64,000 nt of DNA, taken from positions 124,001-188,000 of the forward strand of contig NZ_JAIWHV010000001.1 in NCBI RefSeq assembly GCF_020177375.1, in the 5' to 3' direction. This DNA is from Saliphagus infecundisoli. GTDB lineage: Archaea > Halobacteriota > Halobacteria > Halobacteriales > Natrialbaceae. Positions 7,112 to 10,174 of the stretch are shown here, one piece after another; positions within the stretch are counted from its first letter, which is position 1; every line of letters begins with the position of its first letter. The translations under genes were made by a program, and so were the position numbers. The notes beneath the pieces are model-generated. The model worked only from the letters and a program-made list of their open reading frames with translations. It was not told where the DNA came from and did no database searches.

Positions 7112-7860
7112 CGCTCGGCCACCTCCTCGACGGCGCTTTCCGTCCAGACCGTGAGCCGACCGCCCTCCGCGCCCGGCGCGAGGTCCTCGGCGTTGACCTC
7201 GCTCGCGGTCGCCACGTCGGCGCCCGCGAGGTTCCGCGCGGCCCGGGAGGGCCCCGCCTCGGTGCTCGTCACGAAGAGGATCGACGACGGCTCCTTATAC
7301 TTGCGGCCACGGGTCGTCCCGCGGCCCGAGCGGACCGACCGGCCCTCGTCGGCGCGGGCGACGTCGCCCACGAGGCCGACGGTTTCGAGGAAGTCGACGA
7401 CCTCCCTGGTCTTTTCGAGGTCCTCGAACTCGTCGGTGACGACCAGCGGGAACTCGAGGTCGCTCTCGATGCGATGACCGCGTTCCGCGACGAGGTCGGC
7501 GTCGGCCGTCGCCGCGATCGCGCTGCGGACCGCGAGCCGCTTCTCTTTGGTGTTGATCGATTCGCTCCAGTCCTTCTCGGCTTTCGGCGGGTGGGCCTTG
7601 CGCCCCTTGATCGCCTGGGGGACGCGGCGTGCGCGCCCGTCCTGGCGGGGAACGTGGGCCATCCCGCGGCCGCTGCCGTACGATTCGGCCGGCGTCCGCT
7701 TGCCGGCGAACTCGTCGGCGCCGTACTCCTGTTTTCGGTTCGCCTGGGCGGCGCGGACGGCCCGGCCGATGACGTCCGGCCGGTAATCGGTCTCGAAGAC
7801 CGACGGGAGTTCGACCTCCCCCGCGTCGCTTCCGTCCAGGTCGTATGCTGTTGCTTTCAT
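7108..7860 (-). CDS. rpl4: 50S ribosomal protein L4 (uL4)
   Basis: The 250-residue L4 binds 23S rRNA domain I and lines the exit tunnel with an extended loop. The loop is seen at about 57-90 (RTPAESYGSGRGMAHVPRQ, then GRARRVPQAIKGRKAHPP). The globular part carries EKRLAVRSAIAATAD and SVRSGRGTTRGRKYKEPSSILFV, both archaeal L4 signatures. A gap of 18 nt separates it from L3, and it is coupled to L23 by a 4-nt overlap. Confidence 0.97.
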   Translation of the reverse strand: MKATAYDLDGSDAGEVELPSVFETDYRPDVIGRAVRAAQANRKQEYGADEFAGKRTPAESYGSGRGMAHVPRQDGRARRVPQAIKGRKAHPPKAEKDWSESINTKEKRLAVRSAIAATADADLVAERGHRIESDLEFPLVVTDEFEDLEKTREVVDFLETVGLVGDVARADEGRSVRSGRGTTRGRKYKEPSSILFVTSTEAGPSRAARNLAGADVATASEVNAEDLAPGAEGGRLTVWTESAVEEVAER

Positions 7861-8902: not shown

Positions 8903-9754
8903 TCACGCTGGCAGTGTGAGGCAGGCGAGGGTCGCGAACATCGCTTCCTCCGTCCGCACGACCTCGCTGCCCTGATCCGGAACCGTGTTCAGCCAGAGGT
9001 CGAACCCCGGATCGGCGGGTTCGACTCCGTTCTCGGCACCGTCGGCGCCGACGGCCGACGCCTCAATGCCGAGGATGTCGGGCAGCCCTCTCTCGGGCGA
9101 GCCGAAGGCGACGGTCATCCCGTCGCCGACCCGTCCGGCCAACCTCCCCAGCCGCCCGACGGTGAGTTCTTCACCGTAGCGGGAGGCCGCGATGGGGACG
9201 CCGGCGTCCTCACGGCCGAGTGCTGTCCGAAGGTCCGCACGGCAGATCGACAGCCCCGGAACGGGCCGATCGACCAGTTTCGCGCGGACCGGTCGTCGCG
9301 AAGAGATCCTGACGGTGACGCGCTCCCCCTCGGAGACCTCCATTCCGGGAGGCTGGTTGAGAGAGATCGGGTGTTGCAGTCCGCAATTGACCCGGACGCG
9401 GCCTTCAGGTCCGACCTCGGTCACGATCCCTTGTCTTATCGACCCCGAACCGTTCGATTCGGAGCCGGTCCGTGACGCGACACGCAGCGGCGGGAGGACA
9501 CCGACGTACTCCAGTTCGTCGCGCTTGCCCCACACCTCGGTTTTGAGGTATGGCGGCGTCGCGGCGTACCGCAGCACGGTTTCGACGAACCCGCCACCGA
9601 GTCGCCTCTCGCCTTCCCGGTCGGGGAAGACGACGAGACGGTCGGCGCGGAAGACCGTCGCCGCGCGGGCGATGTAGCCGAGTTTTCGGGTCGCCTCGCG
9701 TTTGTCTTCTGCCTCGCGGCAGACCGACGACGGCACGAGTACGCTGACTGTCAT
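8903..9754 (-). CDS. Putative SPOUT-class RNA methyltransferase (COG2106, SPOUT1/C9orf114 family)
   Basis: This 283-residue protein has an N-terminal SPOUT-type half (VSVLVPSSVCREAEDKREATRKLGYIARA, then RADRLVVFPD) interrupted by an OB-like insertion (about 110-170, QGIVTEVGPEGRVRVNCGL). The C-terminal half contains the region expected to form the trefoil knot and S-adenosylmethionine site (VAFGSPERGLPDILG, then FDLWLNTVPDQGSEVVRTEEAM). The family is conserved directly upstream of rpl3 in haloarchaea and is inferred to modify RNA; its exact target cannot be told from sequence. It is the first gene of the ribosomal operon. Confidence 0.85.
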   Translation of the reverse strand: MTVSVLVPSSVCREAEDKREATRKLGYIARAATVFRADRLVVFPDREGERRLGGGFVETVLRYAATPPYLKTEVWGKRDELEYVGVLPPLRVASRTGSESNGSGSIRQGIVTEVGPEGRVRVNCGLQHPISLNQPPGMEVSEGERVTVRISSRRPVRAKLVDRPVPGLSICRADLRTALGREDAGVPIAASRYGEELTVGRLGRLAGRVGDGMTVAFGSPERGLPDILGIEASAVGADGAENGVEPADPGFDLWLNTVPDQGSEVVRTEEAMFATLACLTLPA

Positions 9755-9955: not shown

Positions 9956-10026
9956 GCGCTGGTAGTGTAGTGGTATCACGTGACCTTGCCATGGTCACAA
10001 CCTGGGTTCAAATCCCAGCCAGCGCA
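9956..10026 (+). tRNA. tRNA-Gly, anticodon GCC
   Basis: The 71-nt gene folds into a full cloverleaf. The acceptor arms GCGCTGG and CCAGCGC pair over 7 bp, with A as discriminator. The anticodon arm is TGACC-TTGCCAT-GGTCA, giving anticodon GCC, and the T arm is CTGGG-TTCAAAT-CCCAG. No intron is present and the CCA end is not encoded. The last 21 nt of the paired 3' part recur 149 bp downstream (10154-10174), which marks this gene as an integration target. Confidence 0.97.
10005..10025 (+). repeat. tRNA-Gly 3' end, first copy of a 21-bp direct repeat (putative att site)
   Basis: This is the T-arm to acceptor 3' segment of the tRNA-Gly gene. It is repeated identically at 10154-10174. Site-specific integrases of archaeal elements commonly target exactly this part of tRNA genes, leaving one copy in the intact tRNA and one at the far end of the insert. 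Confidence 0.8.
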
Positions 10027-10108
10027 CTTCTACGGCGAACGACTCCGACGAGCACCGCGTACCGTGTGCTCGTCACAGGGGAGCCGAGAAGTCGCCCTCT
10101 ATTTTACG

Positions 10109-10149
10109 GAAGACGCACGCTCACGAGCGTAGCGAGTGAGACCGTCTTC
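10109..10149. repeat. Imperfect inverted repeat between the two tRNA 3'-end copies
   Basis: The outer arms GAAGACG and CGTCTTC (7 bp) enclose inner arms CTCAC and GTGAG around a GAGCGTAGCGA centre. The inner motif resembles intergenic palindromes common in haloarchaeal genomes. It could form a hairpin in RNA. It lies inside the short interval bounded by the direct repeats, which otherwise holds no gene. Confidence 0.6.
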
Positions 10150-10153
10150 AGGT

Positions 10154-10174
10154 GGTTCAAATCCCAGCCAGCGC
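10154..10174 (+). repeat. tRNA-Gly 3' end, second copy (putative att scar)
   Basis: The 21 bp are identical to 10005-10025 but no tRNA body precedes them. The preceding sequence cannot supply D or anticodon arms. The simplest reading is the distal attachment site of an integrated element that has since been deleted down to about 127 bp. Confidence 0.7.

What the first reader, a model, noticed from the sequence alone, without database searches (positions are those of the whole stretch)
9956..10174. Integration scar: tRNA-Gly 3' end duplicated 149 bp downstream
The last 21 paired bases of tRNA-Gly(GCC) (10005-10025) recur exactly at 10154-10174 with no tRNA body before them. Archaeal integrases target this part of tRNA genes, so the pair looks like attL and attR of an element. 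Only about 127 bp remain between the copies, too little for any element, which implies near-complete internal deletion or a minimal satellite. The site may still be active for new insertions.
Basis: partly seen in the sequence, partly recalled or inferred. Interest (0 to 1): 0.5.

Follow-up and report, generated by a model that had tools for sequence, protein, structure and literature searches.

The report
Haloarchaeal tRNA-tail repeat cassettes
The duplicated tRNA end looks like one member of a family of small hairpin cassettes that sit right behind many tRNA genes in salt-loving archaea, each ending in a copy of the tail of its own tRNA, rather than a leftover from a lost virus.

Summary
The repeat is real: 21 bp at 10005-10025 recur exactly at 10154-10174, with 128 bp between. 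It is not a one-off scar. The interval is a cassette: hairpin H1, an inverted copy of the tRNA T-arm (decayed here), hairpin H2, then a copy of the tRNA 3' end. A copy of the own tail follows 15 of 44 tRNAs in this genome and 23 of 43 in a genome of another family. The arm-and-copy signature occurs in 375 of 391 Halobacteria genomes (control 0); elsewhere in the phylum 43 of 311 genomes have one or two matches. Of 119 testable elements from a collection scan, 116 follow a tRNA. Copy and arm are specific to the tRNA in front; H2 cores are shared between tRNAs. Relatives differ by whole cassettes, exactly at the repeat. Viral contigs with this tRNA end carry a longer core, and this contig has no integrase gene. 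The topology matches the E. coli tyrT rtT repeats, but not their Rfam model; my searches found no description. Best reading: rtT-like tRNA-trailer cassettes, with H2 probably acting as RNA (inferred). A minimal integrative element remains a live rival. No expression data were available.

The parts
9956..10026 (+). tRNA-Gly(GCC), complete
   Evidence: ARAGORN (9956-10027); Rfam RF00005 66.7 bits
10005..10025 (+). first repeat copy: T-loop to end of acceptor stem of the tRNA
   Evidence: exact match
10026..10092 (+). hairpin H1, starting at the discriminator base
   Evidence: fold z -2.96 with ends paired; the antisense strand folds at least as well; hairpins in the same place in related loci
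10097..10105 (+). decayed inverted T-arm (intact form GGATTTGAA in relatives)
   Evidence: only 6 of 12 bases match the expected arm; at this tRNA in relatives the arm is within 2 mismatches in 128 of 133 units and exact in 68
10109..10149 (+). hairpin H2, its core the same but for two bases as that behind tRNA-Ser(GGA) of the same genome
   Evidence: fold z -2.0, 10 of 200 shuffles as good; alignment with L159; same core at L029, L030, L159
10154..10174 (+). second repeat copy: tRNA 3' end without tRNA body, right border of the cassette
   Evidence: exact match

Best explanation
The duplicated tRNA end is the right border of a small cassette (H1, inverted T-arm, H2, copy of the tRNA 3' end) belonging to a class-wide haloarchaeal family that works like the rtT repeats of the E. 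coli tyrT operon. Shown: the anatomy, the position behind tRNA genes, the tRNA-specific arm and copy, the sharing of H2 cores between tRNAs, and differences between relatives by whole cassettes exactly at the repeat. Inferred: the cassette is co-transcribed as the tRNA's trailer; the inverted arm pairs with the downstream copy and so closes the H2 stem; tRNA-end cleavage would free a structured trailer RNA; and recombination between the repeats keeps the copies identical to the tRNA and changes the cassette number. In this window the inverted arm has decayed, so this particular unit has lost its closing stem.
For: Class-wide: 375 of 391 genomes, 85 of 87 genera, control 0. 116 of 119 testable elements follow a tRNA, 29 ARAGORN tRNA labels, and the copy matches the own tRNA in 91 of 116 against 2.1% for other tRNAs. 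15 of 44 tRNAs here (control 4/1890) and 23 of 43 in another family (control 15/1802) have a copy. The arm follows the T-loop type in 44 of 45 and its stem covaries (score 0.218 against 0.131, 0 of 500 shuffles). H2 is more stable as sense than antisense RNA in 109 against 10 of 128 units, and over 23 clusters (17 against 5, p 0.0024). 13 pairs of tRNA-Gly genes, some sharing a member, differ in cassette number with the flank starting at the same place. E. coli rtT has the same topology.
Against: H1 shows no energy bias and has more G-U pairs on the antisense strand (257 against 89). The arm gives no strand signal (G-U 46, A-C 24, both below the independence expectation). Much of the H2 bias remains when G-U pairs are forbidden, so it may reflect purine-rich loops. 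An RNA role does not explain why the copy reaches the acceptor end when only about 12 nt pair with the arm. The own arm beats every other tRNA's arm in only 7 of 37 units. 44 of 153 tRNA-Gly genes have no recognised cassette, so it is dispensable at a given tRNA. No expression data.
Confidence: 0.55

Rival explanations
1. Minimal non-autonomous integrative element: the 21-bp T-loop-to-end sequence is an attachment core and H1/H2 are recombinase arm sites, so ~110-160 bp circles insert behind tRNAs with an integrase acting in trans.
For: Relatives differ by whole cassettes at the core; the copy ends exactly at the acceptor end; H2 cores shared between tRNAs; a Haloquadratum provirus has a 22-nt tRNA duplication (PMC3119063, passages); H1 is not biased to sense RNA; tRNA-Arg(CCT), one of the 15, has an integrase gene about 2 kb away.
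Against: The other 14 of the 15 tRNAs with a copy lie on contigs with no integrase hit. Three viral contigs with this tRNA end have a ~43-bp core and, by eye, no H1/H2 on their own side. The inverted arm is tRNA-specific, which a moving element could hardly bring along. H2 has a strand bias.
Confidence: 0.27
2. Integration scar: attL and attR of one element whose interior was deleted.
For: tRNA 3'-end repeat; viral-contig sequence joined to this tRNA end does occur (L124, L125).
Against: The same cassette type sits behind many tRNAs in most haloarchaea searched; spacing at this tRNA is short, at most 1,952 bp between neighbouring matches; the viral core is different.
Confidence: 0.06
3. Neutral palindromic repeats that spread by template switching or gene conversion at the T-arm, with no function in RNA or DNA.
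For: Variable presence (44 of 153 tRNA-Gly genes without), decayed arm in this window, mixing of H1 and H2 types between loci (by eye).
Against: Compensatory changes in the arm, near-universal presence in one class, strand bias of H2.
Confidence: 0.12

Closest known systems
rtT RNA repeats of the E. coli tyrT operon (Rfam RtT, RF00391)
   Same: Repeats behind a tRNA gene, each ending exactly in a copy of the tRNA 3' end (19 nt), with an inverted arm upstream that can pair with that copy (paired so in one of two repeats folded) and a structured insert between; tRNA genes and repeats alternate.
   Different: One tRNA locus in the E. coli stretch looked at, 175-178 bp spacing, arm over T-stem and acceptor. 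The haloarchaeal family occurs behind tRNAs with 29 ARAGORN labels, has a hairpin H1 right behind the tRNA and an arm over T-loop and T-stem, and the own genome has no match to the RtT model.
Tyrosine-integrase attachment sites in archaeal tRNA genes
   Same: Repeat of the tRNA 3' end next to the intact tRNA.
   Different: No integrase on the contig, no cargo, short interval, hairpins, tRNA-specific inverted arm; three viral contigs with this tRNA end use a ~43-bp core.
PATEs / IS605-type elements of Haloquadratum (PMC3119063, passages)
   Same: Small haloarchaeal elements with palindromes; HqIRS46 has a 22-bp repeat.
   Different: HqIRS46 is 390 bp and a 4-5 bp targeting sequence is mentioned; the passages tie none of them to tRNA ends. 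No direct sequence comparison was made.

Membership tests
RtT RNA (RF00391) | scores over the Rfam covariance-model cut-off | tested here: not met
   0 matches in the own genome, E. coli control rings; no RtT hit
RtT RNA (RF00391) | repeat behind a tRNA ending in a copy of the tRNA 3' end | tested here: met
   E. coli compared
RtT RNA (RF00391) | inverted arm pairing with the tRNA-end copy | tested here: met
   met for the haloarchaeal family and seen in E. coli; decayed in the window unit (6 of 12)
RtT RNA (RF00391) | released as a processed RNA from the tRNA transcript | not testable with these tools
   no expression data held
Integrase attachment scar | tRNA 3'-end direct repeat | tested here: met
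Integrase attachment scar | same core as elements that use this tRNA | tested here: not met
   ~43-bp core from the anticodon loop in L124-L126; a 22-nt duplication is reported for another tRNA in Haloquadratum
Integrase attachment scar | related genomes carry an element between the copies | tested here: not met
   119 of 125 family genomes with a match: at most 1,952 bp between neighbouring matches on one contig; G020, G068, G102 and G124 have matches on two contigs
Integrase attachment scar | integrase gene nearby | tested here: not met
   8 PF00589 hits in the genome, none on contig C11
Minimal integrative element | excised circle or recombinase-dependent movement | not testable with these tools
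   whole-cassette differences between relatives only

The most novel reading that the evidence does not exclude
Halobacteria carry a class-wide, self-spreading family of tRNA-trailer RNA elements: H2 cassettes move between tRNA genes and acquire the arm and tail of each new host tRNA, giving from one to a few dozen structured RNAs per genome tied to tRNA expression. With rtT in E. coli this would be an independently evolved kind of tRNA-parasitic or tRNA-regulating element in two domains.
Probability: 0.3. Interest if true: 0.88.

Novelty: new variant of a known kind. Interest (0 to 1): 0.72.

Why it matters
A structured element behind a third to a half of the tRNA genes in the two genomes surveyed, with its signature in nearly every haloarchaeal genome searched, appears to be undescribed within the searches made. 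It mimics tRNA ends, so it can mislead the annotation of attachment sites and tRNA fragments, as it did here. It offers a genetically tractable way to ask what rtT-type repeats do, and how cassettes acquire the tail of the tRNA they sit behind.

Tried and rejected
Deleted-element scar: rejected (shared cassette build, different viral core, no integrase on the contig, no large insert). CRISPR-like array or ordinary tandem repeat: rejected by eye, since the spacers are hairpins and the repeat is tRNA-specific. Known Rfam family: none. Similar DNA: one plasmid record, the N. bangense megaplasmid carrying the same locus, and no phage record. Viral contigs with the arm-and-copy pattern: 29 listed, only scanned for tRNAs and not followed further. 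Integron attC-like and tRNA-intron-like readings were considered from memory and not tested. H1 as sense RNA: not supported. Arm strand test: uninformative. The strand bias (109 against 7) is not used as evidence because that pattern fixes the orientation.

Rows dropped before counts: 12 tRNAs of the dense C25 cluster; 5 of 133 units without an arm; tRNA-Gly genes with 320 bp or less behind the last core, and the plasmid locus L063; one of the 38 tRNAs with a copy (37 used). In the 45-element set one element (L252) is counted in both directions; the alignment leaves out that second entry and three of the remaining entries (over 80 bases, or identical inside), 41 used. One of the 15 tRNAs with a copy, Arg(CCG), has it 16 bp behind the tRNA, with no room for a cassette.

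Literature: searches listed no paper that I recognised as describing these units. Passages only were read in PMC3119063, PMC9897764, PMC8371274, PMC5496347, PMC3402447, PMC2864571 and PMC2841640. A Haloferax small-RNA paper (PMC3495736) is not held.

Full report
Observation. The two 21-bp copies are exact, the only ones in the window within 3 mismatches and unexpected by chance. Their 17-base core occurs only at these two places in the assembly, up to 1 mismatch. The tRNA-Gly(GCC) is intact. The interval is 128 bp.

The locus in the family. A search for the repeat, with 1 mismatch allowed, in 125 genomes of the same family found it in 119, the tRNA itself included; many have 2 to 6 copies in one direction, often 110-160 bp apart. 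The locus was obtained from 118 of those 119 genomes (and the window; G068 left out), plus one plasmid locus. Family membership (Natrialbaceae) is inferred from the near-identical tRNA region of Natronorubrum bangense. Of 153 tRNA-Gly genes with enough sequence behind them, 44 have no further core within the limits used, 80 have one, 27 two and 2 three. Where the tRNA differs in sequence, the copies usually follow it (by eye).

Anatomy. Between tRNA and copy lies a fixed order (by eye): hairpin H1, which starts at the tRNA 3' end; a stretch complementary to the T-loop and T-stem (GGATTTGAA in tRNA-Gly loci); hairpin H2; then the tRNA-end copy. Of 133 core-to-core units at 88 loci, 128 have the inverted arm within 2 mismatches, and 68 of these contain it exactly. 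In the window the arm has decayed (6 of 12 bases), while H1 and H2 still fold (z -2.96 and -2.0; for H1 the antisense strand folds at least as well).

Not only tRNA-Gly. A symmetric pattern for arm and copy found 6 places in this genome, all behind tRNA genes: Arg, Met, Ser, Leu (TAG), Val and Leu (GAG). Over all tRNAs outside a dense cluster of 12 on contig C25, 15 of 44 have a copy of their own 3' end within 600 bp (2 mismatches in 16), against 4 of 1890 cross pairs; in G383, from another family, 23 of 43 against 15 of 1802. One of the 15 has its copy only 16 bp away. The H2 core behind tRNA-Ser(GGA) is the same as that in the window but for two bases, while the tRNA part differs.

Distribution. 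The pattern occurs in 375 of 391 genomes of the class and 85 of 87 genera, with no control match. In a phylum sample of 392, 78 of the 81 members of the same order have it; of the other 311 genomes 43 have one or two matches and 12 have control matches (counted from its rows). These loci hold 126 elements: 116 follow a tRNA gene (106 in the strand of the pattern, 10 in the other), 7 are too near an end to tell and 3 have none. ARAGORN gives 29 tRNA labels, and the copy continues with the own tRNA end in 91 of 116, against 2.1% for other tRNAs. An earlier sample of 50 elements gave 44 with a tRNA.

Specificity of the arm. In 45 entries (one element counted in both directions) the arm matches the T-loop type of the copy in 44, and its next five bases pair with the own tRNA more than with shuffled partners (2.49 against 1.93, 0 of 2000). 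Rare T-loops have matching arms in G383 (by eye). Over 37 units the own arm scores 9.8 of 12 against 8.4 for other tRNAs, but is strictly best in only 7. In an alignment of 41 elements the arm stem has 83.6% standard pairs and 48 cells changed on both sides against 28.5 in shuffles; the invariance of most of it comes from the search pattern itself.

RNA or DNA. H2 folds better as sense than antisense RNA in 109 against 10 of 128 units. The bias holds over 23 sequence clusters (17 against 5) and in the 45-entry set (34 against 9). It persists with G-U pairs forbidden (161 against 4 of 173), so loops carry much of it. H1 shows no energy bias and more G-U on the antisense strand (257 against 89); the arm is uninformative. 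An RNA role for H2 is therefore favoured but not shown.

Gain and loss. Thirteen pairs of tRNA-Gly genes with matching flanks, several sharing a member, differ in cassette number, the flank match starting within 9 bp of the core on both sides. Example: L092 has one cassette where L096 has none, with 600 bp of flank 94% identical. L076 has two; L075 shares its first and L077 its second. Cassettes come or go whole and at either position, as expected from recombination between repeats or from site-specific insertion; direction was not determined.

Viruses. Four viral contigs hold the 20-base end of this tRNA. In L124, L125 and L126 it belongs to a ~43-bp stretch starting at the anticodon loop; in L124 and L125 an H1 / inverted-arm stretch lies beyond it, as in host loci, and L126 encodes an integrase (PF00589) beside it. 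L124 also holds a tRNA-Glu with such a unit behind it, which I read as host sequence. L127 is a different context. So viral use of this tRNA end looks different from the window repeat. An integrated virus-like region with a 22-nt tRNA duplication is reported in Haloquadratum (PMC3119063, passages), so a T-loop-type integrase is possible. In this genome 8 integrase hits were found, none on contig C11; of the 15 tRNAs with a copy, 14 lie on contigs without one, and tRNA-Arg(CCT) has one about 2 kb away.

Comparison. In one E. coli record the tyrT locus has tRNA-Tyr, one rtT, tRNA-Tyr and three rtT repeats. Each repeat ends in a 19-nt copy of the tRNA end, and a GGGGAAGG-type arm lies upstream; in one of the two repeats folded it pairs with that copy. 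The topology is the same; the sequence model is not met. That rtT is processed from the tyrT transcript is stated in the record's note; its function is not known to me.

Verdict. The finding is real but is one decayed member of a class-wide family of tRNA-tail cassettes. Function is open; I favour trailer RNA over a mini integrative element by about two to one.

Noticed in passing
window 9309-9408 (-): Rfam L4-Archaeoglobi leader (RF03135, 70 bits) lies inside the RNA methyltransferase ORF 8903-9754 (PF02598); the same Rfam hit occurs in five related loci. A leader inside a coding region looks odd.
   Followed up: no
own genome contig C25:6686-9493 (L191): Twelve tRNA hits packed in 2.8 kb with an unusual isotype mix, perhaps a virus or plasmid tRNA array, or contamination.
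   Followed up: no
own genome contig C12:3331-4659: An integrase hit lies directly behind tRNA-Glu(TTC) on the same strand, perhaps a true integrated element.
   Followed up: no
   Followed up: partly
L138, L142, L147, L149, L153: GC-rich viral contigs carry long palindromes starting GATTTGAACC and ending GGTTCAAATC, with no tRNA found in the stretches held; they resemble a T-arm.
   Followed up: no
window 7736-7829: ARAGORN tRNA call with a four-base anticodon inside what is, by gene order, the ribosomal protein L4 gene; likely false.
   Followed up: no
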